A DNA stretch of 38,555 nucleotides from Candidatus Egerieousia equi (GTDB lineage Bacteria > Bacteroidota > Bacteroidia > Bacteroidales > UBA932), in NCBI GenBank assembly GCA_018065035.1, contig JAGHUC010000080.1:1-38555 (forward strand). The letters are read 5' to 3'. Under the pieces are notes generated by a model that was not told where the DNA came from, ran no database searches, and worked only from the letters and a program-made list of their open reading frames with translations. The position numbers and the translations under genes are program-made. Each line of letters begins with the position of its first letter. Within the stretch, counting starts at the first letter, position 1. Below are positions 4,971 to 32,312 of the stretch, piece by piece.

Positions 4971-6521
4971 CTAATGTTTGAAATGTCTTACGCCTGTGCA
5001 GAGCATGCAGATTCCGAGTTCATCGGCTTTGGCAATGCACTCGCCGTCACGTATGCTGCCTCCTGGCTGGACTATCGCTGTAACGCCATATTTAGCGGCA
5101 AGGGCAACTGTGTCGTCAAATGGCAGGAAGCCGTCTGAAGCAAGTATCAAGCCGCTTGTGAAGCCTGCGGCCTGAGCCTGCTTGAGAGCAATCTCAGCCG
5201 ACCCCACACGGTTGGTCTGACCGGCGCCAACACCTATGGTGTGACCGTCACGGACAACTGCAATGGCATTTGATTTCACGTGCTTCACTATCTTCCAGCC
5301 GAACTGCATGTCTGACATGATTTCCGCTGCAGGCTGAACCTTGGTAACACACATTTCAGGCTTGAGAGTCTCAACGTATGTGTCCTGCTGCTGAACGAGC
5401 ATACCCCCGGCAACACCTACATACTGTGTCACAGGACTGCTGCTCTTTGTCATATCCACCTGCATCACGCGAAGATTCTTCTTTGTGGCAAGAATCTCAA
5501 GTGCCTCGGGAGTATATGAAGGAGCAATCACAATCTCAAGGAAAATAGGCTTCATTCCAAGGGCAACCTCGGCTGTAAGTTCACGGTTCACACCAACAAT
5601 GCCACCGTAGATACTTACCTTGTCGGCCTCGAAAGCAGCCTGCCATGCCTGCTCGATTGTTGGAGCAACTGCCGCACCGCAAGGGTTCATGTGCTTGAGG
5701 GCAACGCAGAAAGGCTCGTCAAAATCCCTGAGGATAGAGAGCGCGGCATTGGCGTCCTGAATATTGTTATATGAAAGTTCCTTGCCCTGAATCTGTGTGG
5801 CAAAAGGAAGTGCGAACGCCTTGCTTACAGGACTTGTTCCAACGCCTGTGCACTGTGCATAGAAGTTGGCGCTCTGATGAGGGTTCTCACCGTAACGGAG
5901 CGGCTGCTTGATATCGTACTCAAGGAACAGTTTCTCAGGCAGACCGGCCTGTTTTCTCATATATGTTGCAATGCAGGAATCATACTGGGCTGTATGAGTG
6001 TATGCCTTTGCAGAGAGTTTCAGACGTGTCTCGCGGCTTGTGTTTCCGTTGGCCTTGAGCTCGGCAAGCACTGTGTCATAATCAGCAGGATCGCATACGA
6101 TTGTAACGTCACGCCAGTTCTTTGCAGCGCTGCGCACCATTGAAGGTCCTCCGATATCTATGTTCTCTATTGCATCCTCCATTGTCACACCTTCCTTTGC
6201 AATGGTCTGACGGAAAGGATACAGGTTCACAACAACCATGTCAATGGTCTCAATGCCGTTCTCCCTGAGGGTTTCCATGTGCTCCGGAACATCCCTGCGG
6301 GCAAGTATTCCACCGTGAACCTTAGGATGCAAGGTCTTCACCCTGCCGTCGCAGATCTCAGGAAAACCTGTGACCTCGCTTATGCCTATGGTCTTCACGC
6401 CCTTGCTTTCCAGCAATTTCTGCGTGCCTCCCGTGGCAATGATCTCCCAGCCCATTCCCTGAAGTCCGCTTACGAACTCCACGAGGCCGCTTTTATCACT
6501 TACGCTAACTAATGCTCTCAT
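4971..6521 (-). CDS. purH: Bifunctional AICAR formyltransferase / IMP cyclohydrolase
   Basis: 516 residues. It catalyses the last two steps of IMP synthesis. The N-terminal MGS-fold cyclohydrolase domain (about 1-195) shows VSVSDKSGL, ATGGT, GRVKTLHPKVHGGIL and ENIDIGGPSMVRSAAKN. The C-terminal transformylase domain shows YGENPHQ, ALKHMNPCGAAV (catalytic Lys-His), KSNAIAVV, GVGAGQTNRVGSAEIA and the end GVRHFKH, which is typical of a complete PurH. It is downstream of purN by 21 bases and upstream of purD in the leftward purine cluster. Confidence 0.97.
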   Translation of the reverse strand: MRALVSVSDKSGLVEFVSGLQGMGWEIIATGGTQKLLESKGVKTIGISEVTGFPEICDGRVKTLHPKVHGGILARRDVPEHMETLRENGIETIDMVVVNLYPFRQTIAKEGVTMEDAIENIDIGGPSMVRSAAKNWRDVTIVCDPADYDTVLAELKANGNTSRETRLKLSAKAYTHTAQYDSCIATYMRKQAGLPEKLFLEYDIKQPLRYGENPHQSANFYAQCTGVGTSPVSKAFALPFATQIQGKELSYNNIQDANAALSILRDFDEPFCVALKHMNPCGAAVAPTIEQAWQAAFEADKVSIYGGIVGVNRELTAEVALGMKPIFLEIVIAPSYTPEALEILATKKNLRVMQVDMTKSSSPVTQYVGVAGGMLVQQQDTYVETLKPEMCVTKVQPAAEIMSDMQFGWKIVKHVKSNAIAVVRDGHTIGVGAGQTNRVGSAEIALKQAQAAGFTSGLILASDGFLPFDDTVALAAKYGVTAIVQPGGSIRDGECIAKADELGICMLCTGVRHFKH

Positions 6522-6542
6522 ATATCAATGTTTAAAATTTTT

Positions 6543-7124
6543 CTAAATGCTTGCTAACAACTTGTCTATGGTCTCAACATACAACTGATGCTCTATGACC
6601 TGGCCGAGCCTGTGAACTTCGGCGGCATCGGAACCATCGTAGTAGAAGGCCCTCTGATCTATTATTTTTCCACCGTCGATGGTCTTGTCAACCCAATGTA
6701 TGGTAATACCATAGACTTTCACTCCGTAGGCAACGGCATCCTCCACGCCGTGCGCCCCCTTGAATGAAGGGAGAAGTGCAGGATGGATATTGATTATCCT
6801 GCCCTCGTATGCATCCAGCAGCGTATGGGCAACTATACGCATATATCCGGCAAGGCAGATCAAGTCAACCTCCTTGCTGCGCAGGAGTTCAACCACCCTG
6901 GCCTCATAGTCCGCTTTCGTCGGGAATGACTTCGGTGAGGCCACAAAACTCTCGATTCCGAAACGTTCCGCTCTCTCAACAACCAGTGCGCCCGGCTTAT
7001 CGCAAACCATAAGCACAATCTCAGCCTTTCCCGCAAGAAGTCCGTCCTTGCAGGCCTGGGCAATTGCCTCAAAGTTTGTTCCGCTGCCGCTTGCAAATAC
7101 TGCAAGTCTCTTCAATACGCCCAT
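6543..7124 (-). CDS. purN: Phosphoribosylglycinamide formyltransferase (GART, folate type)
   Basis: 193 residues, standard size. It transfers formyl from 10-formyl-THF to GAR. The sequence shows AVFASGSGTNFEAI at the N-terminus, CLAGYMRI, the catalytic block INIHPALLPSFKGAHGVEDA, and ITIHWVDKTIDGGKIIDQ (His and Asp of the active site). Its ATG is one base past the purM stop, so the pair is probably translationally coupled. No formate-dependent PurT is seen in the cluster. Confidence 0.96.
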   Translation of the reverse strand: MGVLKRLAVFASGSGTNFEAIAQACKDGLLAGKAEIVLMVCDKPGALVVERAERFGIESFVASPKSFPTKADYEARVVELLRSKEVDLICLAGYMRIVAHTLLDAYEGRIINIHPALLPSFKGAHGVEDAVAYGVKVYGITIHWVDKTIDGGKIIDQRAFYYDGSDAAEVHRLGQVIEHQLYVETIDKLLASI

Positions 7125-7125
7125 C

Positions 7126-8151
7126 TCAAATGATATTTACACCCGGAACATCTGTAACCTTGCCAATGACAGAGGCTTTCTCGCCACAGTTCTCAAGTAT
7201 TGAAATGACTTTGGCTGCATCCTGCTGGTCAACAACTGCCACCATACCAATGCCCATGTTGAAAATGTTGAACATCTCCCTGTGAGGAACACCGCCCCAT
7301 TTCTCCAGCATCTTGAAAACAGGAAGTATCTCCCAGGTACCTTCCTTTATCTCAAGGCCCTGGCCTTCGTGGAGCACTCTTGGTATGTTCTCATCGAAAC
7401 CGCCGCCTGTAATATGGCATATTCCGTGAACATCCACGTTACGGATTACCTCAAGCATCTGCTTCACGTAGATTCTTGTAGGGGTGAGAAGCACTTCACC
7501 AAGTTTCCTGCCACCGAACTCAGGAATTGAATCCTCGTAGTTCAGAGCGGCGTCTGCAACAATCTTGCGGACGAGCGAGAAACCGTTTGAATGAACACCG
7601 CTTGAAGCAACGCCAACAAGAACATCACCCACCTTCACCTTGCTGCCGTCTATGAGTTTGGATTTCTCAACAACGCCTGTAGTGTAACCTGCAATGTCAT
7701 ATTCGCCATTGCCGTACATTCCGGGCATCTCAGCTGTTTCGCCGCCTATGAGTGCGCAGCCTGCCTGACGGCATCCTTCAGCAACACCGGCAACGATTGC
7801 CTCAACCTTCTGGGGAACATTGTGCCCCAGAGCAACATAGTCAAGGAAGATAAGCGGCTCTGCACCCTGTGCAAGGACATCGTTCACACACATTGCAACT
7901 GCATCAATACCAATGGTATCGTGCTTGTCCATTGCAAAGGCAATCTTCAGCTTTGTTCCAACACCGTCTGTTCCGCTTACCAGAACAGGCTCCTTCACAT
8001 TAAGTGAAGAAAGGTCGAACATTCCTCCAAAGGAACCGATATTGCCCATCATTCCCTTGCGTGCGGTTGATGCAACGTGCTGTTTAATTCTGCGGACAAC
8101 TTCGTATCCTGCCTCAAGGTTTACACCTGCGTTTTCGTAACTTTTTGCCAT
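7126..8151 (-). CDS. purM: Phosphoribosylformylglycinamidine cyclo-ligase (AIR synthetase)
   Basis: 341 residues, normal length. PurM closes the imidazole ring (FGAM to AIR, ATP-dependent). Family blocks: [84 protein letters not shown] and FNMGIGMV. It lies 32 bases downstream of purF and is directly followed by purN. Confidence 0.97.
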
Positions 8152-8183
8152 ATATCTTTATTTTTTATTTTTTCTGAAACATG

Positions 8184-9536
8184 TTATTCCTCGTCATCCG
8201 TGTAGAGGGCGGTAGGGTATTCGCCCGTAAAGCATGCCTGGCAAGGATCGGCACAGCCGAAGCACGATTCGCGTGTGCTCTCCGGGCTGAGGAAACCAAG
8301 TGAATCGGCACCGATTGCCTTGCAGGCCTCCTCCAGTGTTCTGTGAGAGCACAGAAGTTCCTCAGGTGTTGAAGTGTCAACGCCATAGAAACAAGGATAT
8401 TTCATCATAGGGCTCGCAATCCTCACGTGTACCTCCTTGGCGCCAGCTTCCTTGAGTAGTTTCACAATCTTCAGGGAAGTTGTTCCACGAACTATAGAGT
8501 CATCAATGAGTGCAATCTTCTTTCCTTTCACCACGCTGGTTACAGGGCAGAGCTTCATCTTAACGCCCATCTCACGCATTTCCTGAACAGGCTGGATGAA
8601 AGTCCTTCCAACATATTTGTGTTTGATAAGGCCCATCTCGTATGGAATACCGCTTTCCTCGCTGTAACCCATTGCTGCGCTCAGGCTGCTTTCCGGAACA
8701 CCAACAACAATGTCGGCATCACAAGGAGCCTCCCTGTAGAGCCTGCGTCCTGCTTCCTTGCGGTAGCTGTGCACGTTGCAACCGTCAATGTCACTGTCCG
8801 GACGTGCGAAGTAAATGTACTCCATTGCACACATCCTGTGTTTCTTGAAACGGCTGTACTGCCTTGTTCTCAGTCCCTTTCCATCTATGGTGATGATCTC
8901 TCCAGGTTCAACGTCCCTTATGAACTCCGCTCCTATTATCTCGAATGCGCAGGACTCGCTGCTCACAACATATCCGTTCCCGAGACGGCCCAGGGCCAGC
9001 GGTTTGATTCCGTACTTGTCACGGCAGGCGTAAAGCCTGTTCTTGGTCATGACTATGAAAGCGAAACCGCCTTCCATCATGTTCAATGCTGACTGGATGT
9101 TTCCGATACGGTCCTCGTCGCGCTCCTTCTTGATAAGATGTGCCAGAATCTCACTGTCGGTGAGTGTATGGAAAATATCGCCTCTCTTTTCAAGATAGTC
9201 CGCAATCTGTGCCGAATTCACAAGGTTTCCATCGTTGGCTATTGCAAAATCGCCTGCTCTGTGATGGAAGAACTGCGGACCAACATTATCAATCCCGCCC
9301 TTTGAAACATTGGCATATCTCACCGAACCCAAACCTATGGTTCCTTCAAGAGGAGCAATGTTCCCTGGATTGAACACCTCATTCACAAGACCCGTACCGC
9401 GATACCTGTGAGCTGCACCGTCTTCACTGAAGGTTACGATTCCCGCACCCTCCTGACCTCTGTGCTGCATATTGTGCAATCCGTAAAAAACAACTGTTGA
9501 AGCGCCCTGCACTCCATAAACGCCAATTACACCCAT
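8184..9536 (-). CDS. purF: Amidophosphoribosyltransferase with degenerate glutaminase site
   Basis: 450 residues. PurF makes phosphoribosylamine from PRPP and glutamine-derived ammonia, the first committed purine step. The PRT half is intact: VVGVPESSL, the PRPP loop ALIDDSIVRGTTS, and a Cys-rich tail CFGCADPCQACFTGEYP resembling Fe-S type PurF enzymes. The N-terminal Ntn-amidotransferase half is odd. Family members start MCG with Cys as the nucleophile; here the protein begins MGVIGVYG with no Cys, and an in-frame stop six codons upstream rules out a longer start with one. The oxyanion segment normally AHNGNL reads ANDGNL, and RYST reads RYAN. The fold markers QHRGQEGAGI and TDSEIL remain. 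It may use free ammonia or a partner glutaminase; that is inference. Confidence 0.9.
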   Translation of the reverse strand: MGVIGVYGVQGASTVVFYGLHNMQHRGQEGAGIVTFSEDGAAHRYRGTGLVNEVFNPGNIAPLEGTIGLGSVRYANVSKGGIDNVGPQFFHHRAGDFAIANDGNLVNSAQIADYLEKRGDIFHTLTDSEILAHLIKKERDEDRIGNIQSALNMMEGGFAFIVMTKNRLYACRDKYGIKPLALGRLGNGYVVSSESCAFEIIGAEFIRDVEPGEIITIDGKGLRTRQYSRFKKHRMCAMEYIYFARPDSDIDGCNVHSYRKEAGRRLYREAPCDADIVVGVPESSLSAAMGYSEESGIPYEMGLIKHKYVGRTFIQPVQEMREMGVKMKLCPVTSVVKGKKIALIDDSIVRGTTSLKIVKLLKEAGAKEVHVRIASPMMKYPCFYGVDTSTPEELLCSHRTLEEACKAIGADSLGFLSPESTRESCFGCADPCQACFTGEYPTALYTDDEE

Positions 9537-9569: not shown

Positions 9570-10289
9570 TTATTTATCAAGCACTTGCGATAGTCTTTCA
9601 TAAACCTCATGGTAAGAGGCAACCACATCGCTCAAATCCTTGAGGAATCTGGTCTTGTCAAGAATCTTTCCTGTAGCTTCATCCCAGAGGCGGCAGGTAT
9701 CCGGACTGATTTCATCCGAAATGATTATCTCGCCGTTGTCGGCCGCTCTTCCGAATTCAAGCTTTACGTCAACAAGCTCGATTCCGGCCTTATGGAAAGC
9801 CTCGGATAGAATCTTGTTAACCTTGCCTGCTGTCTCATATATGAACGCAAGCTCCTCCTTGTTCACAAGCCCGAGAAGCACTGCGTGCTGGCCGGTGATA
9901 AGAGGATCGGCAAACTCATCGTTATTGTAATGAAGGTCAAAGAGCGGTTCCTCAGGAACCGTGCCCTCAGCTACACCAATGCGGCTTACCAGAGTGCCTG
10001 ACACCTTGTTACGTATGGTGAGCGCCAGCGGAATGATATCAATCTTCCTGCAAAGCATCTCCCTGTCGCAAGCCTCAATGAAATGAGTCCTTATCCCATT
10101 GCTCTCAAGAAGCTTGAAAAGCATTGCGGAAATCCTGCAGTTCACTTCACCCTTGCCCCTGAATATGGCCTTCTTGATATTGTTGTAACCAAGCGTCACA
10201 TCCTTGAAGTGGATGATGATTCTGTTGTCATTGTCGGTAGCGAAAACCTTCTTTTCCTTGCCGTTGAAAACTATATCTCTCTTTTCCAT
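9570..10289 (-). CDS. purC: SAICAR synthetase (PurC), canonical-like copy
   Basis: 239 residues, the usual size of short bacterial PurC. It condenses CAIR with aspartate using ATP. Seen: GKEKKVF near the N-terminus, GKGEVNCRISAMLFKLLE, GIRTHFI, TIRNKVSGTLVSRIGVAEG, DPLITGQH, VDVKLEFGR, and the conserved C-terminal motif SDEISPDTCRLWDEATG. The segment normally KDDATAFNG is changed to KDVTLGYNN, a nucleotide-site difference. It lies between purL and purF with gaps of 3 and 33 bases. A second, more divergent PurC-like gene heads the cluster. Confidence 0.9.
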   Translation of the reverse strand: MEKRDIVFNGKEKKVFATDNDNRIIIHFKDVTLGYNNIKKAIFRGKGEVNCRISAMLFKLLESNGIRTHFIEACDREMLCRKIDIIPLALTIRNKVSGTLVSRIGVAEGTVPEEPLFDLHYNNDEFADPLITGQHAVLLGLVNKEELAFIYETAGKVNKILSEAFHKAGIELVDVKLEFGRAADNGEIIISDEISPDTCRLWDEATGKILDKTRFLKDLSDVVASYHEVYERLSQVLDK

Positions 10290-10292
10290 AGC

Positions 10293-13200
10293 CTATTTCT
10301 TTCTGAAGTACCTTACCGCATTGTCAAAGAGCGGCTGATACAGATTGCCGGAAATATTCTTGAAGTTGCCTTCCTCGTAACGCTCCGTATGGCCCATCTT
10401 GCCAAGTATGTGACCGTCAGGACTGAGAATGCCCTCGATATCGTAATATGAACCATTAGGATTCTCAACATAGCGGAAAGCCACCTGACCTGCCTCAAAG
10501 AGCTTGCGTGCCATATCCTCGTTAACCACGAACTTGCCCTCGCCGTGGCTGATTGCAATGGTGTGCTCCTGTCCGAGTTCAAGACCTGCGAGCCAAGGAG
10601 AGTTCACGCTTGCAACCTTGGTTGTGGTCATCTGGCTGATATGGCGGTTGATGTCGTTGCGGAAAAGTGTAGGTGAATCCTCGCTCACGCAACCAAGTTT
10701 TCCGTATGGAAGAAGACCGCTCTTCACAAGAGCCTGGAAGCCGTTGCAGATTCCTATAATAAGACCATCGCGGTGGAGGAAATTCTCTATAGCCTTGCCA
10801 ACCTTCTCGTTGTTTATGACTGCGGCAATGAATTTTCCGCTTCCGTCGGGCTCGTCGCCGGATGAGAAGCCTCCGCAGAATGCAAGTATGTGGCTCTTCT
10901 CTATCTGCTGTGCCAGCTCGTCAATTGAATCGAGCACGTCCTGCCCGGTGAGATTCCTGAAAATGAAGGTGTTCACCTGGGCGCCGGCCTTGCGCAGAGC
11001 CTTTGCGGTATCGTAGTCGCAGTTGCTGCCAGGGAAGACAGGCAGGCAGACTACAGGATGCTCAACCGCCTCGAAACGGTATTTCAGATTTTCTGCAGCG
11101 CCAGAAACAGCCTCAACCTTCAAATCCTCGAGCTTTCCCTTGAATTTTGCTTCCACTGCCGATGGGTAAACATTCTCATATCTGCTGAGATTGCAGCTGT
11201 ACAGAGCATCTAGTTCCATTGGAACATCGTTGATTTCAAGAACCGCCTCAGGAATTGTGCGGCCGAGAAGTACTGCATTCTCATATCCGAGCGGTGAAAC
11301 GCTCTCTACTATGAGCGAACCGTACTCCATATTGAACAGCTCGCTTTCAGGAGCATATACTCTTGCTCCAATGCCGTTGCCGAAAGCCATCTTTGCCAGT
11401 CCTTCAGCCACACCGCCGAAACTTACAGACCATGCTGAAACTATGTTCTTCTGGAGAATCTGGCTGCGTGTGAAGTCCCAGTTGCATTTGAGCATATCGG
11501 TATCAGGCATATAGTTGGCCAATGCCTTGTGACGTATCACATAAACGTAATTCCCTGCCTTCTTGAATTCAGGACTTATTATGTTACCTACCTTCTCACT
11601 GGTGATTCCAAAGGCTATGAGTGTAGGAGGAACGTTCAGATCCTCGAAAGTGCCGCTCATCGAGTCCTTGCCGCCTATTGAAGGAAGGCCGAACTCCAGC
11701 TGCATCTTGAGTGCACCGAGCAGTGCGCTCAGAGGTTTGCCCCAGCTGTGGCTGTCTGCAGTCATTCTCTCGAAGTACTCCTGATATGAGAAACGCATTC
11801 CGCTCCAGTCCGCTCCGGTGCTTACCACCTTGGCGCAAGCCTCAACAACTGCGTATGCAGCTCCGTGATAAGGACTCCATTTTGAAATCTGAGGATTGTA
11901 ACCGAAGGCCATCACGCTTGCGGTGTTGGTGAAACCGTTCACAGGAAGTTTCTGGACCGATGCCTGGGCCTCGGTGCTCTGTTTTGCTCCGCCGTACGGC
12001 ATCACAACGGTTGAACGGCCGATTGTTGAATCGAACATTTCAACAAGACCCTTCTGTGAAGCCACATTAGGCTCGGCAAGAAGATTGCGCATCTTTTCAT
12101 CTATGCCGGCTCCATCAACTTTCTTTGCAAAAGGATTCACGTTCTCAACGGCCTGGATTGCAGCCTTTGAATAGTGCTTTGCCCCGGCGCTGTCTATGAA
12201 TTCCCTGCTCAGGTCACAAACCAGCTTGTCTCCATTGAAGATTCTCATGCGGCCTGTGGAAGTAACGTCGGCCACGTATGTTACCTCAACGTTATCCGCA
12301 TTGCAATATGACTCGAATGTCTCCCTGTCCTTTGCCTCAACAACAACGGCCATCCTCTCCTGCGATTCGCTTATGGCAAGTTCAGTGGAGTTGAGTCCCG
12401 AGTATTTTACAGGAACCTTGTCAAGCCTGATGTCAAGACCATCGGCAAGTTCGCCTATGGCAACACTTACTCCACCGGCTCCGAAGTCATTGGATTTCTT
12501 TATAAGACGGGTGACCTCGCTTCTTCTGAAAAGTCTCTGCAACTGTCTTTCAACAGGAGCATTACCCTTCTGCACCTCACTGCCGCAAGTCTCGAGCGAG
12601 CTTTCGGTATGCTCCTTTGAAGCACCCGTAGCACCTCCTATACCGTCACGTCCAGTACGGCCTCCTAGAAGAAGGATTACATCGCCGGGGGCAGGACTTT
12701 CACGTCTCACATTCTCAGCCTTGACCGCAGCAACAACAGCTCCAACCTCCATTCTCTTTGCAACATATCCGCTGTCGAAAATCTCACGCACGCAGGTTGT
12801 TGCAAGACCTATCTGGTTACCGTAGCTTGAATATCCACCGGCTGCCTTCTGGCTGATGATTCTCTGAGGGAGCTTTCCGGCAAGTGTCTTGTCAATGCTC
12901 ATTGTTATGTCACCTGCACCTGTGACGCGCATTGCCTGATAAACGTATGCCCTGCCTGAAAGAGGGTCCCTGATTGCACCGCCCAGACATGTTGAAGCGC
13001 CTCCGAAAGGCTCTATCTCAGTAGGGTGGTTATGTGTCTCGTTCTTGAACTGAAGCAGCCACTTCTCATCCTGACCGTCAACGTCAACATTTATGAAAAT
13101 GCTGCACGCGTTGTTCTCCTCGCTGCGTTCCATATTGTCCAGCTTGCCTGTTGAACTCAGATAACGTGCACCTATTGTTGCCAGTTCCATGAGGCAGAGG

Positions 13201-23192: not shown

Positions 23193-23266
23193 TGAGATAT
23201 GGTGTAATGGTAGCACTCCAGATTCTGGCTCTGTCGGTGAGGGTTCGAGTCCTTCTATCTCAACCA
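23193..23266 (+). tRNA. tRNA-Gln (anticodon CTG)
   Basis: Cloverleaf read by eye: acceptor TGAGATA/TATCTCA, anticodon stem CAGA/TCTG with loop TTCTGGC (anticodon CTG), T arm GAGGG-TTCGAGT-CCTTC, discriminator A and an encoded CCA (23264-23266). The 27:43 pair at the top of the anticodon stem is a mismatch (C/T). Confidence 0.93.
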
Positions 23267-23269
23267 AGT

Positions 23270-23308
23270 ATCTGCAAACCCAAAAATTTGCAGATTTATT
23301 TTTAAGTT
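23270..23308 (+). terminator. Terminator after tRNA-Gln
   Basis: Perfect 9-bp stem ATCTGCAAA (23270-23278) / TTTGCAGAT (23287-23295) followed by a T-rich stretch. Confidence 0.65.
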
Positions 23309-23323
23309 TTTTCTGTTTCCGAT

Positions 23324-23397
23324 GGCGCGGTAGCTCAGCTGGTTAGAGCGCATGATTCATAATCATGAGGTCCCCAGTTCAATCCTGGGCCGCGCTA
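23324..23397 (+). tRNA. tRNA-Met (anticodon CAT)
   Basis: Acceptor GGCGCGG/CCGCGCT, D arm GCTC...GAGC, anticodon stem CATGA/TCATG with loop TTCATAA (CAT), T arm CCCAG-TTCAATC-CTGGG, discriminator A. CCA is not encoded (CGA follows). Elongator Met is most likely; Ile2 with a lysidine-modified CAT cannot be excluded by eye. No separate promoter was seen, so it may depend on read-through from tRNA-Gln. Confidence 0.9.
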
Positions 23398-23407
23398 CGA
23401 ACTAAAA

Positions 23408-23849: not shown

Positions 23850-24524
23850 ATGAATACCATTACAATTTATCACGGTTCGCCAAGCATTGTGACTCCCGTT
23901 TTCGGCGAAGGGAAGACCTATAACGATTACGGGCGGGGATTCTATTGCACTGAAAATCTTGAGCTGGCCAAGGAATGGGCCTGCTCCCAGGACTCCGACG
24001 GGTATGCCAACCAGTATGTCCTGAACCTGGAGGGCCTGAACATCCTGTATCTGAACGAGCCCCGGTACAACATATTGAACTGGCTAGCCATCCTTCTCGA
24101 AAACAGAAGGTTCTCCGTTGCGGAAGGTCTTCCACAGGAAGCAAGGAAATACATTCTGGAAACCTTCCTGCCCGAATACAAGTCCTGTGACATCATCAAG
24201 GGATACCGTGCGGACGACTCCTATTTCTCGTATGCAAGGGACTTCATCAGCAACACACTGTCACTGCAGGACCTCAAGCAAGCCATGATGCTCGGGAAGC
24301 TTGGGGAGCAGGTCGTCCTGAAAAGCGAACGGGCCTTCGCAGCCCTCACGAAGGGCGAGATAATACCCGCGGACAGAAGTGAATATTACGCCAGATACTG
24401 CGAAAGGGACCGCATGGCCAGAGAGAATTACAGGAAGATCTCTTCGCATGCATTCTCTCAGGGCGAAATCTATGTCATTGATCTTATCAGAGGAGGGATA
24501 AAGGATGGAGACCCGCGCTTATAA
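23850..24524 (+). CDS. DUF3990 protein, putative ADP-ribosyltransferase-type toxin
   Basis: 224 residues. It begins TITIYHGSPSIVTPVFGEGK and continues YNDYGRGFYCTENLELAKEW, the DUF3990 pattern (YHGS..., DYGxGFYxT.D...A..WA). This resembles the His/Tyr region of the ADP-ribosyltransferase fold; a C-terminal LGEQVVLKSERAF may supply the third element. DUF3990 proteins are often paired with HTH proteins and are thought to be toxins, but no activity is shown for this subfamily as far as I know. The last 20 bases overlap the HTH gene. GC content is visibly higher than in the flanking intergenic DNA, consistent with acquisition. Confidence 0.8.
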   Translation: MNTITIYHGSPSIVTPVFGEGKTYNDYGRGFYCTENLELAKEWACSQDSDGYANQYVLNLEGLNILYLNEPRYNILNWLAILLENRRFSVAEGLPQEARKYILETFLPEYKSCDIIKGYRADDSYFSYARDFISNTLSLQDLKQAMMLGKLGEQVVLKSERAFAALTKGEIIPADRSEYYARYCERDRMARENYRKISSHAFSQGEIYVIDLIRGGIKDGDPRL

Positions 24525-25143
24525 TGAAGCATATCTTCCGTATGCCATGGAGAATCTTGCCGCGATGATGGATTGCGGCATAAACCAGTGCGGTTTTCCT
24601 CCGCAGCTGTTTCATCGGATGTTCCTGACAAGCGGAATCGCCGGCCAGATGGAAAAGGGCAATCCGCGCTATGTCGCAGGGCTTTCAGGGGCGGAACTCG
24701 CCAGTCGTGTCATCGAACTCGCCGCCGGAAAGTCTCCCGTGGAAATTGACGGAACATTCACCATCTCTCCGGAATACTGGGCGGGATGGGTTCTGGCATA
24801 CTATCAGTGGAAATCCGGGAGATCCTTCCGCGCCATCAACGACAACGGCCTTCACCTGGAAAAGATCATCGCGCTGTACCATCCGCTGCATGAAGCGGAT
24901 CTTGACAAGTTCGCCGCCGTGGCTGACAGGATCATAGCGGAAACCGTCAACAAGTCCGTGAGCCCCTTGAAGAAAGCAAGGGAACAGTCCGGACTCACTC
25001 AGAAGGAGCTTTCCAGAATATCCGGAACATCCCTCAGAATGATTCGCGCTTATGAGCAGAAATCACAGGACATCGCAAAAGCAAACTTCGGAACAGTCTC
25101 AAGGCTGGAGTCTGTCCTGCACGTTGACTTCAGTCAAATATGA
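24505..25143 (+). CDS. HTH (XRE) protein, putative antitoxin for the DUF3990 gene
   Basis: 212 residues. The C-terminal 60 residues form an XRE-type helix-turn-helix (LKKAREQSGLTQKELSRISG, then SLRMIRAYEQKSQDIAKAN and a final short segment). The N-terminal 150 residues contain a helical domain I do not recognise, with AYLPYAMENLAAMMDCGIN and SPEYWAGWVLAYYQWKSGRSF; similar domains accompany HTH regions in TA operons. It overlaps the toxin gene by 20 bases (translational coupling), and a terminator follows. It probably binds the toxin and the palindrome upstream of it (inference). Confidence 0.78.
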   Translation: METRAYNEAYLPYAMENLAAMMDCGINQCGFPPQLFHRMFLTSGIAGQMEKGNPRYVAGLSGAELASRVIELAAGKSPVEIDGTFTISPEYWAGWVLAYYQWKSGRSFRAINDNGLHLEKIIALYHPLHEADLDKFAAVADRIIAETVNKSVSPLKKAREQSGLTQKELSRISGTSLRMIRAYEQKSQDIAKANFGTVSRLESVLHVDFSQI

Positions 25144-25370: not shown

Positions 25371-25386
25371 TGGCACGCTATTTGCA
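25371..25386 (+). promoter_or_regulatory. Sigma-54 promoter, peptide unit A
   Basis: TGGCACGCTATTTGCA fits the RpoN -24/-12 consensus TGGCACG-N4-TTGCA at every defined position, with the standard 10 bases between GG and GC. The peptide ATG is 60 bases downstream. Confidence 0.85.
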
Positions 25387-25445: not shown

Positions 25446-25610
25446 ATGGAAAAGAAATCAAGGAAAGAATTCAAAGATCTGAGCGAAGAGCAGCTGCAGG
25501 AAGTAACTGGAGGGGGAAAGATACACCAAATAATGATCTGTGTAACATCAGTTACAGATAACCCCTGTCCGGGCAAGAGATTGGACTCGCAGTGCCATTG
25601 CATCGACTAG
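25446..25610 (+). CDS. Double-glycine leader Cys-rich peptide A
   Basis: 54 residues. The leader MEKKSRKEFKDLSEEQLQEV ends at TGG (residues 21-23), followed by a 31-residue core with four cysteines spaced C-x8-C-x8-C-x-C and a short tail (CHCID). The leader shares K/F...LSxEELxxVxGG with seven other peptides nearby. Such leaders are normally cut after GG by peptidase-containing ABC exporters, and the four Cys may form two disulfides or be modified (inference). It is monocistronic: sigma-54 promoter upstream, strong terminator 23 bases downstream. The gene is below common annotation length limits. Confidence 0.82.
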   Translation: MEKKSRKEFKDLSEEQLQEVTGGGKIHQIMICVTSVTDNPCPGKRLDSQCHCID

Positions 25611-25632
25611 TTCTTCATCCGCCCTTACCCGA

Positions 25633-25656
25633 GCTCTCCTTCAGGAGGGCTTTTTT
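25633..25656 (+). terminator. Terminator of peptide unit A
   Basis: GCTCTCC (25633-25639), loop TTCA, GGAGGGC (25644-25650), then six T. Confidence 0.85.
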
Positions 25657-25663
25657 AATGCAA

Positions 25664-25689
25664 GCAGGCACCCCCGGAGGGATGCCTGC
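25664..25689. terminator. Hairpin between convergent peptide units A and C
   Basis: GCAGGCA (25664-25670) and TGCCTGC (25683-25689) with additional CCC/GGG pairing inside. There is no good T run on either side, so it may help end the leftward five-peptide unit. The stretch 25690-25847 shows nothing else. Confidence 0.4.
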
Positions 25690-25847
25690 GTTCATGAAAT
25701 AAAGAAATCGAAACAAAAGTTTCAATTCAAACAATTCAGTGCAAAGATAGTCATTTTTCCTGGTCCCGCATTCCCGGTGAAGATTTGACATAATATCCAA
25801 TATGTCAAACCCTGCTCTGCATGGTGTACCGGCGTGGGTGAGAATCA

Positions 25848-26015
25848 CTATAGTACATCTACAGAACACGTACAGTTAGCTTGCGTCCACGTCCCGCCTG
25901 CTAACTTACAGTCAGCACGTGTATCTGTATAGCAATGTACTCCCCCGTTGACCTTTTCAAGTTCCTCCTCCGAGAGTTCCCTGAACTTCTTTTCTTTGGC
26001 ATCTTGTTTTTTCAT
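25848..26015 (-). CDS. Double-glycine leader Cys-rich peptide C5
   Basis: 55 residues from the preferred ATG at 26013-26015; the frame extends upstream to 26045, but the shorter form starts MKKQDAKEKKF like its siblings. The leader ends ELSEEELEKVNGG. The 30-residue core has cysteines spaced C-x7-C-x11-C-x-C, exactly as in peptide B, and both have a GG pair after the second Cys and end in CSV plus an acidic residue. It is last in the leftward five-gene unit C. Confidence 0.82.
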   Translation of the reverse strand: MKKQDAKEKKFRELSEEELEKVNGGVHCYTDTRADCKLAGGTWTQANCTCSVDVL

Positions 26016-26054
26016 ATTCTCAAAGCATTGATTTAAGTTAGTCATTCAACTATT

Positions 26055-26252
26055 TCATCTGCCACTTGTATTAGGCTTTGGCTCGCACTGGCAGTTATTA
26101 TTTTGGTTCTTATACATTCCTGGTTCACATGGATTTCTAAAGTCATCGCACACTATTCTAACTAATGGCGGCCTTCCTCCCCCGTTTACTTGTTCGAGCT
26201 CCTCATCTGAGAGCTGCCTGAATTTCTTTTCCTGTGGTTCTTGTGATTTCAT
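26055..26252 (-). CDS. Double-glycine leader Cys-rich peptide C4
   Basis: 65 residues from the ATG at 26250-26252 (MKSQEPQEKKF, as in C2 and C3); a longer frame to 26282 is less family-like. Leader QLSDEELEQVNGG. The 40-residue core starts basic/Pro-rich (GRPPLVRI), with C-x6-C-x11-C-x-C and the tail EPKPNTSGR. The CQC-x-PKPNT ending is shared with C1 and C2. Confidence 0.83.
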   Translation of the reverse strand: MKSQEPQEKKFRQLSDEELEQVNGGGRPPLVRIVCDDFRNPCEPGMYKNQNNNCQCEPKPNTSGR

Positions 26253-26322
26253 GTCTGTCAAAGTTATTTGTTGAACTTTCATTTGGTTGTGATTCAGAGC
26301 TCAAGTGAACTTATTTCCGTGT

Positions 26323-26532
26323 CTATCTAAACCCCCCGTTCGGCAACTGTTGTCCATTCTCGATGCACTGGTCGCTTGCGTTCTTCATCTTGCACAGCTC
26401 GATGTCAGTGAATTGTTTGCCGGGAGCAACGACTATAACAGGCCACACCTTCCCCCCTCCCGTCACTTTTTCGAGCTCCTCGTCAGATAGTTGCTTGAGC
26501 TGTTTCTTTTCTTTAGGTTCTTGTGATTTCAT
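26323..26532 (-). CDS. Double-glycine leader peptide C3 (divergent core)
   Basis: 69 residues from the ATG at 26530-26532; the frame is open to 26553, just after the C2 stop. The bases before the chosen ATG (ACTTTGAGGAT) match those before C2. Leader QLSDEELEKVTGG. The core has only two cysteines (C-x8-C) and lacks the C-terminal Cys-x-Cys and PKPNT tail; instead it has a hydrophobic VWPVIVVAP stretch and ends NGGFR. It may be a functional partner or a drifting paralogue. Confidence 0.8.
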   Translation of the reverse strand: MKSQEPKEKKQLKQLSDEELEKVTGGGKVWPVIVVAPGKQFTDIELCKMKNASDQCIENGQQLPNGGFR

Positions 26533-26553
26533 ATCCTCAAAGTATAAAATCAA

Positions 26554-26769
26554 TTATTTCATTTTTTCTCTAGCTATGGTGTTAGGCTTTGGCACGCACT
26601 GGCATTTGCCATCAACGTACGTATATATCTCCCCGACTGGGCAACCATCAATAGAAAATAGGCAAACATGATTAGAATGTCCGTCTAAAAACATTCCCCC
26701 ATTGACTTTTTCGAGCTCCTCATCAGAGAGCTGCCTGAATTTCTTTTCCTGTGGTTCTTGTGATTTCAT
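26554..26769 (-). CDS. Double-glycine leader Cys-rich peptide C2
   Basis: 71 residues. Leader MKSQEPQEKKFRQLSDEELE then KVNGG. The 46-residue core has C-x6-C-x12-C-x-C and the CQCVPKPNT motif, with a basic extension IAREKMK after it. Second gene of the leftward unit, 33 bases after C1. Its leader is nearly identical to those of C3 and C4, indicating recent duplication. Confidence 0.84.
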   Translation of the reverse strand: MKSQEPQEKKFRQLSDEELEKVNGGMFLDGHSNHVCLFSIDGCPVGEIYTYVDGKCQCVPKPNTIAREKMK

Positions 26770-26802
26770 ATCCTCAGAGTATTAACTTATGTCAATTATT
26801 CT

Positions 26803-26988
26803 TTATCTATATGTATTAGGCTTTGGCACGCACTGGCAGTTATTCAATGCGTCCGGCATCATTCCTGGTCCACATGGATTTGTGAAGACCTCACCGCACG
26901 CTTTTATCGCAATTGGTGTCCCTCCCGTCACCTTTTCGAGCTCCTGGTCTGAGAGTTCTGTGAATTGTTTTTTAGATTTCTCTTTCAT
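26803..26988 (-). CDS. Double-glycine leader Cys-rich peptide C1
   Basis: 61 residues. Leader MKEKSKKQFTELSDQELEKV then TGG. The 38-residue core has C-x7-C-x11-C-x-C with the FTNPCGPGM pattern (compare FRNPCEPGM in C4) and the CQCVPKPNTYR ending. First gene of the five-peptide unit; its 5' region including the sigma-54 promoter is a near copy of that of peptide B. Confidence 0.84.
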   Translation of the reverse strand: MKEKSKKQFTELSDQELEKVTGGTPIAIKACGEVFTNPCGPGMMPDALNNCQCVPKPNTYR

Positions 26989-27088
26989 GATGATATAGAT
27001 TAAAAGTTGGTATTATCAAAAATCAGGGACAAAAGTAATCAAAAGATCCCCATGGATTAAGACTAAGCAAGAATTGTGCCAGACTGCA
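26986..27088 (-). repeat. About 100-bp promoter/leader repeat, copy 1 (unit C)
   Basis: The region from the peptide C1 start codon through its sigma-54 promoter resembles 27324-27429. Shared blocks include TTAAAAGTT, CAGGG-x-CAAAAGTAAT, TCCCCATGGA and GTGCCAGACTGCA. Both copies also hold TACTTTTG, a -7-like box, between the sigma-54 site and the ATG. Confidence 0.75.
27066..27081 (-). promoter_or_regulatory. Sigma-54 promoter, peptide unit C
   Basis: Minus-strand TGGCACAATTCTTGCT matches TGGCACR-N4-TTGCW fully with correct GG-GC spacing. It lies 78 bases upstream of the peptide C1 ATG and 20 bases downstream of the unit B terminator. Confidence 0.85.
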
Positions 27089-27100
27089 GGACGCATCTGA

Positions 27101-27135
27101 AAAAGAGAAAGCCACGGCTCTCATGAGGCCATGGC
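27101..27135 (-). terminator. Terminator of peptide unit B
   Basis: Minus strand: GCCATGGC ... GCCGTGGC stem (27135-27128 with 27118-27111; one G-T pair) followed by a pyrimidine/T-rich tail. Together with flanks it is an inverted near-copy of the terminator at 32409-32444. Confidence 0.75.
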
Positions 27136-27170
27136 AATCGTCAAATTCCGAATGTCGCACATTGTCAACA

Positions 27171-27326
27171 TTAGTCTACACTTACGGAGCATTTGCACTC
27201 GTGTGGGATAATTATTCCGCCTCTTCGATTACAATCTTCCAAATCGTATGTGAAGCATGGAGCCCCCCCGTTTACATTCTCGAGTTCTTCCTCTGAGAGC
27301 TCTTTGAATTCTTTCTTTGATTTCAT
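27171..27326 (-). CDS. Double-glycine leader Cys-rich peptide B
   Basis: 51 residues. Leader MKSKKEFKELSEEELENVNG, G. The 30-residue core has cysteines C-x7-C-x11-C-x-C, identical in spacing to C5, with CNRRGG and the CKCSVSVD end. It is a single-gene unit with its own sigma-54 promoter 80 bases upstream and terminator 36 bases downstream. Recognised by translating the gap by eye; too short for usual gene callers. Confidence 0.82.
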   Translation of the reverse strand: MKSKKEFKELSEEELENVNGGAPCFTYDLEDCNRRGGIIIPHECKCSVSVD

Positions 27327-27429
27327 GATGTTATAAATTAAAAGTTAGTTTTCTATCAGCAAACAGGGGCAAAAGTAATTAAACTTTCCCCATGGAAAAA
27401 GGATGAGCAAAAAGTGTGCCAGACTGCAA
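27324..27429 (-). repeat. About 100-bp promoter/leader repeat, copy 2 (unit B)
   Basis: Near-copy of 26986-27088 covering the start codon, 5' UTR and sigma-54 promoter of peptide B. It ends directly at the stop of the serine recombinase gene. Confidence 0.75.
27406..27421 (-). promoter_or_regulatory. Sigma-54 promoter, peptide unit B
   Basis: Minus-strand TGGCACACTTTTTGCT, a full match to the -24/-12 consensus. It lies 80 bases upstream of the peptide B ATG and 15 bases beyond the recombinase stop. Confidence 0.85.
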
Positions 27430-27436
27430 TTCACAC

Positions 27437-28066
27437 TCACATCGCCTTCTTCACCTTCAGGACGGTGAACGCCGATACCCCGCATGCGGCGGCCGTGTCC
27501 CTTACGGAGAGGCCCTTTCTGAGCCTTCTGACCACGTCGGGATATTTCTGCAGCAATTGCTCGTCCGACATCCCCGAACCAAAGGGACGGCCCATTCTGA
27601 CTCCCCTGGCAATCGCGAGCTGCCTTCCGCTGTTCAGTCTGCTGACTATGTTCCTCCTCTCTATCTCGGCGCCGAGGCCAAGGACCGTGAGCAGCATCTT
27701 CGCCACCGGGTTCTCCGTTCCATCCGGGAGCATAGTGTCTATGTTAAGGTCCAGGATGTGAATGTTGATGCCGGCCTTGGTGAGATCGTCAGTCACGTCG
27801 AGAATCTTCCGGACGCTGCGGCCCAGGCGCGAGAGCTCGGAGAGCAGCAGGGTGTCCGCCTCCCCTTTTCTGAGGAATGCCAGGCATTCGGCCAGCACCT
27901 CCCTGTCGTCCTTCGCTCCTGATGCTTTCTCCTCATAGACTCTCACCACCTGCATTCCTGATGCGGCCGCATGGCTCCGCAGGTCGGCCACCTGCCTTTC
28001 AGTGTCCTGCCTGTCGCCTGTGGATGATACGCGGGCGTATATGACTGCTCTACTGCTTTTCTTCAT
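27437..28066 (-). CDS. Small serine recombinase (resolvase/invertase family)
   Basis: 209 residues. The resolvase domain starts AVIYARVSSTGDRQDTERQ with catalytic Ser14, followed by Arg-containing LLLSELSRLGRSVRKIL (about residues 93-109), a long E helix (VAKMLLTVLGLGAEIERRNI) and GVRMGRPFG leading into an HTH (LSVRDTAAACGVSAFTVLKV). The size and layout match resolvases/invertases, not large integrases. GC content is markedly higher than in neighbours, a sign of transfer. The small four-Cys gene upstream overlaps its start by 17 bases. It may resolve a mobile element or invert DNA; which sites it uses is unknown. Confidence 0.93.
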   Translation of the reverse strand: MKKSSRAVIYARVSSTGDRQDTERQVADLRSHAAASGMQVVRVYEEKASGAKDDREVLAECLAFLRKGEADTLLLSELSRLGRSVRKILDVTDDLTKAGINIHILDLNIDTMLPDGTENPVAKMLLTVLGLGAEIERRNIVSRLNSGRQLAIARGVRMGRPFGSGMSDEQLLQKYPDVVRRLRKGLSVRDTAAACGVSAFTVLKVKKAM

Positions 28067-32138: not shown

Positions 32139-32312
32139 ATGAAACAGAAAAAACAACTGAGAGAACTCTCTGAAGACGATCTTGAGCAGGTACACGGTGG
32201 CTTGGATCCCTACTGTAAGGCAAAAGACGCAGAGGGAAAGTGCGTTGAAACACCGACATTAGAAACCCCGAAAGGCCTGATTGATCCAGGCGGTCATTCA
32301 CCCGCTTTTTAA
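32139..32312 (+). CDS. Double-glycine leader peptide D (two-Cys core)
   Basis: 57 residues. Leader MKQKKQLRELSEDDLEQVHG, G. The 36-residue core has two cysteines (C-x8-C) and a Pro/Thr/Gly-rich tail ending PGGHSPAF; it lacks Cys-x-Cys, like C3. It is a single-gene unit lying 4.8 kb from the others and on the plus strand, with a sigma-54-like promoter and two terminators. Below normal gene-calling length; the assignment rests on leader and promoter similarity. Confidence 0.75.
   Translation: MKQKKQLRELSEDDLEQVHGGLDPYCKAKDAEGKCVETPTLETPKGLIDPGGHSPAF

What the first reader, a model, noticed from the sequence alone, without database searches (positions are those of the whole stretch)
25446..27326. 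Constant leaders with diversified cores and a fixed Cys-x-Cys end
Leaders of C2, C3 and C4 are almost identical (MKSQEP-x-EKK) while cores differ greatly. Cores fall into subgroups: CQC-x-PKPNT tails (C1, C2, C4), CxCSV tails (B, C5, both exactly C-x7-C-x11-C-x-C), a short form (A), and two-Cys forms (C3, D). This pattern suggests diversification under selection, as in toxin or pheromone families, with the Cys framework kept for disulfides or modification.
Basis: partly seen in the sequence, partly recalled or inferred. Interest (0 to 1): 0.6.

Follow-up and report, generated by a model that had tools for sequence, protein, structure and literature searches.

The report
Shuffled leader-and-core disulfide peptide family
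This bacterium carries at least sixteen tiny genes that share one export tag but carry very different cysteine-bearing payloads, apparently switched on by the same kind of promoter and partly reshuffled by recombination, so it looks like a fast-changing set of secreted peptides, most likely weapons against related bacteria.

Summary
Seven short genes at 25446-27326 (plus one at 32139) encode a near-constant 21-26 aa leader ending in GG and divergent Cys cores. The genome holds eight more in two other loci. All 16 leaders lack Cys; all 16 cores have 2 or 4. Nine share C-x6-8-C-x8-12-C-x-C. Compared by DNA, leaders change silently (pooled pN 0.02, pS 0.25), cores mostly at protein level (pN 0.29, pS 0.22). 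New: (1) gene K1 on another contig is a recombinant of one window gene's promoter and leader with another's core; (2) each of the 8 transcription units has a sigma-54-type element 41-148 nt before its start, although the genome has only 18 such sites; (3) no exporter lies beside the peptides, but one C39 exporter in the genome sits with a VKOR-thioredoxin protein whose relatives elsewhere sit beside Cys-rich short peptides; (4) leader family and oxidoreductase are absent from 38 other genomes of the genus, the leader also from 392 of the order. Best reading: sigma-54-controlled, GG-leader, disulfide-bonded class II bacteriocin-like peptides, diversified by leader-anchored recombination and fast core change. 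Activity, disulfides and exporter pairing are inferred.

The parts
25371..25385 (+). sigma-54-type -24/-12 element TGGCACGCTATTTGC, 60 nt before A
25446..25610 (+). peptide A, 54 aa: leader 23 aa, core 31 aa, 4 Cys
   Evidence: 88% identical over 433 nt to the K4 segment on C106
25631..25652 (+). terminator-like stem-loop after A
   Evidence: 4 found, 2.0 expected in shuffles; weak
25848..26015 (-). peptide B, last of the operon, 55 aa, core C-x7-C-x11-C-x-C
   Evidence: start chosen by leader alignment
26055..26252 (-). peptide C1, 65 aa, leader MKSQEPQEKK..., 4 Cys, CQCEPKPNT tail
26323..26532 (-). peptide C2, 69 aa, 2-Cys core (C-x8-C) also found in K1 behind a different leader
26554..26769 (-). 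peptide C3, 71 aa, 4 Cys, CQCVPKPNT tail; core relative in K3
26803..26988 (-). peptide C4, first gene of the likely operon C4-C3-C2-C1-B (gaps 33, 21, 70, 39 nt), 61 aa, 4 Cys
27067..27081 (-). sigma-54-type element TGGCACAATTCTTGC, 78 nt before C4
27171..27326 (-). peptide C5, 51 aa, core C-x7-C-x11-C-x-C
   Evidence: (TIGR03949 24.6 bits, cut-off 21.5)
27407..27421 (-). sigma-54-type element TGGCACACTTTTTGC, 80 nt before C5
32046..32060 (+). sigma-54-type element TGGCACACTTTTTGT, 78 nt before D
32139..32312 (+). peptide D, 57 aa, 2-Cys core (C-x8-C)

Best explanation
A genome-wide family of at least 16 small secreted peptides. RNA polymerase with sigma-54, opened by the genome's one clear sigma-54 activator (an NtrC-type response regulator near a large histidine kinase), transcribes eight units. 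Each peptide carries a GG leader that a peptidase-C39 ABC exporter recognises, cuts after GG and exports. In the periplasm or outside, the core's paired Cys are joined as disulfides, most likely by the VKOR-thioredoxin protein encoded beside the exporter on another contig. The mature 21-50 aa peptides most likely act as class II bacteriocin-like antagonists of close relatives. Near-identical leader DNA serves as the crossover site by which promoters and leaders are recombined with other cores, and cores then diverge quickly. Shown: genes, leader/core split, Cys counts, promoter elements, recombinant gene, exporter loci, phyletic restriction. Inferred: transcription, export, disulfides, pairing with that exporter, and antibacterial function.
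For: GG leader: TIGR01847 over cut-off in 7 of 8 window peptides. Sixteen of 16 cores with an even Cys number, no Cys in leaders. Sigma-54-type element within 200 nt upstream of 8 of 8 transcription units, against 18 sites in the whole genome (reversed-pattern control 6) and 0 of 106 ORFs of 150 aa or more on six stretches of the same genome. RpoN present and one strong activator (E 3e-73; the other four hits are partial, E 7e-7 or weaker). Exporter locus on C124: outer membrane channel, two HlyD-like proteins, two ABC proteins (one with C39), and a protein with C39-like, VKOR and thioredoxin parts (its VKOR match, 24.4 bits, is just below the cut-off of 27.5, but its C-x7-C loop pair, CPLC and CAYC align with Cys of the Parabacteroides relative, whose VKOR is over the cut-off). 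In 4 of 4 plasmid neighbourhoods of relatives that I opened (of 7 records found) a short Cys-rich peptide lies near that gene, and in 3 of 4 a C39 ABC exporter. The oxidoreductase is in 1 of 39 genomes of the genus, the one with the peptides. K1 = C4 promoter and leader + C2 core. Bacteroidetocin regions likewise hold a C39 exporter and a thiol oxidoreductase thought to make disulfides (PMC6671954, passages).
Against: No exporter, oxidoreductase or immunity gene lies in the window. Two other C39 exporters exist in the genome, so the pairing is not unique. The C124 exporter locus has no perfect sigma-54 element. The cores are small and of low net charge (-5 to +2). No function or disulfide was measured. 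Several sigma-54-type sites are copies by duplication (A/K4; C4/K1), so the 8 of 8 are not eight independent events. No homologue outside this genome was found to test the family's history.
Confidence: 0.52

Rival explanations
1. The peptides are signals (pheromones) rather than weapons: exported the same way but read by receptors of kin or by the two-component genes beside the exporter.
For: No immunity genes near any array; low net charge; ComC model over cut-off for C4 (21.1 against 20.4 bits); a SpoIIE-type response regulator, histidine kinases and a TonB-dependent receptor lie next to the exporter (kinases read by eye).
Against: Sixteen mutually different cores in one genome are hard to reconcile with one or two receptors; the ComC match is to the leader only. 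Bacteroidetocin producers also lack immunity proteins (PMC6671954, passages), so that absence is not telling.
Confidence: 0.2
2. The Cys are used for thioether or other enzymatic modification (lanthipeptide or radical-SAM product) and not for disulfides.
For: Leaders give sub-cut-off matches to several lanthipeptide and RiPP models; a radical-SAM and C39 exporter locus exists on C68.
Against: That locus has its own two precursors with a different leader type. No modification gene lies near the peptide arrays. Even Cys number in 16 of 16 cores and the VKOR-thioredoxin gene favour disulfides. LanM/LanC elsewhere in the genome was not searched.
Confidence: 0.1
3. A host- or protist-directed role: small disulfide peptides acting on eukaryotic cells, as inhibitor-like molecules.
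For: Compact CxC frameworks with variable loops; a weak Macin match for D and Tertiapin match for C5 in Pfam, both far below cut-off.
Against: Those matches are at chance level; the organism's habitat is unknown.
Confidence: 0.06
4. The leader/core contrast is only relaxed constraint: an acquired, now unused family whose leaders are kept alike by gene conversion and whose cores drift.
For: Core dN/dS is not significantly above 1; the family was found in this genome only.
Against: Leaders accumulate silent but not replacement changes (pS 0.25, pN 0.02), which conversion alone does not give; 16 of 16 frames are open with an even Cys number; every unit keeps its promoter element.
Confidence: 0.08

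Closest known systems
Bacteroidetocins (class II-like peptides of Bacteroidetes; Coyne et al. 2019, PMC6671954, passages read)
   Same: GG leader, small mature peptide with Cys, C39 exporter, thiol oxidoreductase, no immunity gene, Bacteroidota.
   Different: There one peptide sits in a four-gene region; here 16 peptides lie in three loci away from any exporter, leaders are 21-26 aa (not 15-16), most cores are shorter than 42 aa, and sigma-54-type elements precede each unit.
Prochlorosins (ProcA/SyncA) of picocyanobacteria (PMC10783134, passages read)
   Same: Conserved GG leader with variable cores, genes distributed over the genome and served by machinery encoded elsewhere; recombination proposed as a source of diversity.
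   Different: Leader is Nif11-type and cores are lanthionine-bridged by ProcM; here no Nif11 match was seen in the Pfam scan and disulfides are the likely bridge.
NHLP-type bacteriocin export system (TIGR03794, TIGR03796, TIGR03797)
   Same: The C124 exporter proteins give their best NCBIfam matches to these three models.
   Different: All three scores are below the curated cut-offs; no NHLP leader over cut-off.
Class II bacteriocins with double-glycine leader (TIGR01847, TIGR03949, PF10439)
   Same: Leader and cleavage motif; size.
   Different: Probable Gram-negative producer; matches cover the leader, not the core.

Membership tests
Double-glycine-leader bacteriocin precursors (TIGR01847) | leader signature over the curated cut-off (15.7 bits) | tested here: met
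   7 of 8 window peptides, 16.2-21.6 bits; D not
Double-glycine-leader bacteriocin precursors (TIGR01847) | cleavage after GG by a C39 exporter | not testable with these tools
   three C39 exporters in the genome, none linked
Bacteroidetocins | leader of 15-16 aa | tested here: not met
   leaders are 21-26 aa; figure from PMC6671954
Bacteroidetocins | at least two Cys in the mature peptide | tested here: met
   2 or 4 in 16 of 16
Bacteroidetocins | mature peptide of 42-53 aa | tested here: not met
   5 of 16 cores are 42-53 aa: C2, C3, K1, K3, K6; range from PMC8546649
Bacteroidetocins | C39 exporter, TM protein and mostly a thiol oxidoreductase gene next to the peptide | tested here: not met
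   none in the window or beside the C106 and C69 arrays
Bacteroidetocins | sequence similarity of the mature peptide | not tested
   bacteroidetocin sequences were not at hand
TIGR04149 GG_sam_targ_CFB (radical-SAM-modified RiPP) | score over 25 bits | tested here: not met
   best 13.4 bits; no match in the genome (but its controls were silent too)
Prochlorosins | Nif11-type leader | tested here: not met
   no Nif11 family among Pfam matches at E up to 1 for 8 peptides
Sigma-54 regulon | -24/-12 element upstream, RpoN and an activator in the genome | tested here: met
   (consensus recalled)
Sigma-54 regulon | transcription depends on RpoN | not testable with these tools
   needs an experiment
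Disulfide peptides | Cys pairs oxidised | not testable with these tools
   even Cys counts and a VKOR-thioredoxin gene only

The most novel reading that the evidence does not exclude
A combinatorial peptide arsenal: one sigma-54 activator, one exporter with its own disulfide-forming enzyme, and a scattered set of leader cassettes whose shared leader DNA is the recombination site that continually re-pairs promoters and export tags with new disulfide cores. It would be the disulfide counterpart of prochlorosins, with a defined regulon and a lineage-specific repertoire.
Probability: 0.35. Interest if true: 0.75.

Novelty: new variant of a known kind. Interest (0 to 1): 0.56.

Why it matters
The GG-leader peptides of Bacteroidota described in the papers read sit beside their exporter, one or two at a time. 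Here a large repertoire is uncoupled from the exporter, seems to share a single sigma-54 control, and includes a recombinant in which the leader/core switch point can be read. That gives a direct way to study how small secreted peptide repertoires diversify, and a promoter motif plus a VKOR-thioredoxin marker for finding other orphan peptides that leader models miss.

Tried and rejected
Homologue hunts outside the genome gave nothing: genome contigs by A1 and A3, viral contigs by A3 and C4, plasmids and phages by DNA and by protein.

Exporter promoters: I expected a sigma-54-type element upstream of the exporters; none with a perfect match was found, so exporter co-regulation is not claimed.

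Other sigma-54-type sites: of the 18 sites, 8 precede the peptide units; the other 10 precede unrelated genes or lie in or near genes read only in part. A leader-motif scan of the stretches round them found no further GG peptide. They remain unexplained.

In related genomes the stricter element TGGCACRNNNTTTGCW occurs 0-2 times per genome against 8 here. It gave 34 sites outside this genome; 29 came as loci and were read, 5 were not. In 19 of the 29 it precedes ribosomal protein S16 (family checked on one copy); I saw no GG peptide in the 520 nt downstream of any (L100 ends at its contig end).

Weak relatives: G006 has a GG peptide with four Cys (L044) and G025 a GG-like ORF (L043), both without an element; too distant to count.

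Site-specific inversion: the serine recombinase at 27437-28066 is close to the array, but the inverted repeats found are the leaders themselves (73% over 62 nt, and two of 16 nt), so an invertible promoter was not supported.

Structure prediction of the C4 core with five other window cores gave mean pLDDT 65; not used. A search of solved structures with the oxidoreductase found none.
Full report
WHAT IS THERE. The window is one contig (C119) of a 1.92 Mb, 150-contig genome, 95.7% complete, 0.4% contaminated. No tool names the organism; the plasmid relatives of its oxidoreductase are all Bacteroidota, and I take it for a Bacteroidales-type member by inference. Labels used here: A 25446-25610 +, B 25848-26015 -, C1 26055-26252 -, C2 26323-26532 -, C3 26554-26769 -, C4 26803-26988 -, C5 27171-27326 -, D 32139-32312 +. 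C4-C3-C2-C1-B lie head to tail with gaps of 33, 21, 70 and 39 nt and form a likely operon. A converges on it from the other side; C5 has its own unit upstream.

THE FAMILY IS LARGER THAN THE WINDOW. A profile of the eight (A1) finds 16 matches in the genome: eight in the window, six on C106 and two on C69. The C106 genes, on locus L023: K1 10285-10485 +, K2 10547-10687 +, K3 10712-10915 + (EG in place of GG), K4 11225-11383 -, K5 9941-10114 -, K6 9638-9856 -. The C69 genes, on L024: M1 11224-11409 + and M2 11460-11603 +. Leaders are 21-26 aa and have no Cys. Cores are 21-50 aa, with 2 Cys in six genes (C2, D, K1, K2, K6, M2) and 4 in the other ten; 16 of 16 are even.

LEADER AGAINST CORE. Nei-Gojobori counts on paralogous pairs: leaders A/K4 (Nd 2, Sd 3), C4/K1 (1, 4), C1/C3 (1, 3), pooled pN 0.023 and pS 0.25; cores C3/K3 (27.5, 6.5) and C1/C4 (26, 4), pooled pN 0.29 and pS 0.22. 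The Nd:Sd contrast between leader and core is significant (Fisher p about 8e-5 on rounded counts, 4e-4 if C2/K1 is added). Core dN/dS above 1 is not significant (p 0.28). Other pairs were computed and left out of the pools: cores of A/K4, C4/K1, C1/C3, B/C5, C3/C4, K1/K3 (poorly aligned or with high or saturated dS) and the leaders of C2/K1, C3/K3, C1/C4, B/C5, C3/C4, K1/K3 (more distant; pN 0.12-0.24 with pS 0.51 or more). In the duplicated A/K4 segment, 88% identical over 433 nt, the core is the most changed part: 65 of 90 aligned bases identical, against 64 of 69 in the leader and 111 of 117 in the 3' flank (Fisher p 7e-6 core against flank).

LEADER-CORE RECOMBINANTS. K1 is 89% identical to window 27084-26921 (C4 promoter and leader) and from its core onward follows C2, whose core it repeats with almost no change, while C4's core is unrelated; the switch lies at the end of the leader, in DNA that C2 and C4 largely share. 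The intergenic stretch and leader that follow K1 (those of K2) match those that follow C2 (those of C1), so a deletion between the leaders of C4 and C2 in an ancestral array would make K1 in one step (inference). K3 pairs a C4-like leader (93% over 44 nt) with a C3-like core (90% over 80 nt). K2 pairs a C1-like upstream region and leader with a new core. Repeated leader DNA is thus the likely crossover site.

SHARED PROMOTER ELEMENT. Every transcription unit (8 of 8) has TGGCAC-N5-TTG[CT], the sigma-54 -24/-12 form (recalled consensus), 41-148 nt before its first ATG, six of them 60-80 nt. The genome has 18 such sites in all (11 with TTGC); the reversed pattern gives 6 and 2. None of 106 ORFs of 150 aa or more on six stretches of the genome has one within 200 nt (these ORFs were listed mechanically and include non-genes). 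Some sites are copies by duplication, so they are not independent. RpoN is present, and one activator stands out (C112, E 3e-73): a 386-aa response regulator with an AAA+ part, most like NtrX and NtrC models but below their cut-offs, whose matches end near model position 373 so that a C-terminal DNA-binding part seems to be missing. A 1214-aa histidine kinase lies close by.

EXPORT AND OXIDATION. No exporter lies in the window. The genome has three C39 ABC exporters. That on contig C68 sits with a radical-SAM gene and two precursors with another leader type. That on contig C39 has no precursor found beside it. That on C124 sits in a set of channel, two HlyD-like, two ABC proteins and a 470-aa protein with C39-like, VKOR and thioredoxin parts. 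No GG peptide was found beside it either. The VKOR match is 24.4 bits against a cut-off of 27.5, the thioredoxin and C39 matches are also below cut-off; two relatives carry VKOR and thioredoxin over the cut-offs, and one of them aligns over nearly the whole length with the loop Cys pair, the membrane CxxC and the thioredoxin CxxC in register. Seven plasmid records hold a relative, all Bacteroidota. I opened four: each has a short peptide with several Cys nearby, with GG in three and AG in one; three have a C39 ABC exporter, the fourth a separate C39-domain gene that may be the split N-terminal part of the oxidoreductase. This makes the C124 set the best candidate to export and oxidise the orphan peptides. 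The oxidoreductase is in 1 of 39 genomes of the genus, this one.

DISTRIBUTION. Leader profile A2 at E 0.001: 0 of 38 other genomes of the genus and 0 of 392 others of the order, a sample of that group. Profile A1: 0 of 60 others. More distant GG peptides exist in the genus (L044), so the statement concerns this leader family only. In the other genomes the strict element occurs 0-2 times, against 8 here, and mostly before ribosomal protein S16 (19 of 29 loci read, of 34 sites). Peptides, their promoter elements and the oxidoreductase thus appear together in this lineage.

READING. The anatomy fits secreted, disulfide-bonded class II bacteriocin-like peptides under sigma-54 control, whose repertoire changes by recombination at the leader and by fast core change. 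Bacteroidetocins give the precedent for exporter plus thiol oxidoreductase and for producers without immunity proteins (PMC6671954, passages); prochlorosins for distributed genes with one conserved leader and variable cores (PMC10783134, passages). It is not a bacteroidetocin by leader length, core length and gene neighbourhood. A survey of Bacteroidales RiPP clusters notes GG-motif precursors, two clusters of them without a C39 exporter (PMC10352776, passages). Nothing in print linking sigma-54 with GG peptides of Bacteroidota was seen in the listings, nor VKOR with such exporters; those searches cover open-licence PMC papers only, and only the listings were read.

Noticed in passing
loci L073-L101 (29 loci from genus relatives): A perfect sigma-54-type element lies roughly 190-320 nt upstream of ribosomal protein S16 in 19 of 29 loci read, an unexpected place for such a promoter.
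   Followed up: partly
27437-28066 -: Serine recombinase (PHROG DNA invertase, Mpi-like below cut-off) directly upstream of C5; no inverted repeats other than the leaders found around the array.
   Followed up: partly
23850-25143 +: DUF3990 gene overlapping an HTH gene just before the array, a toxin-antitoxin-like pair by arrangement (reading is mine).
   Followed up: no
window 23193-23398; L023 11680-11754: tRNA genes lie about 2 kb from the window array and 0.3 kb from the C106 array, which may mark insertion sites.
   Followed up: no
L005 13004-13547 - with 10150-11490 - and 6504-8714 -: A separate radical-SAM, DUF4932 and C39 exporter cluster with two Cys-bearing GG precursors of another leader type.
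   Followed up: partly
L025 3059 (C27:41558-41572 -): A sigma-54-type element 90 nt before a probably secreted protein of unknown kind in an AT-rich stretch (36% GC).
   Followed up: no
L044 (G006:C7): A GG peptide with four Cys in a genus relative, without the promoter element.
   Followed up: partly
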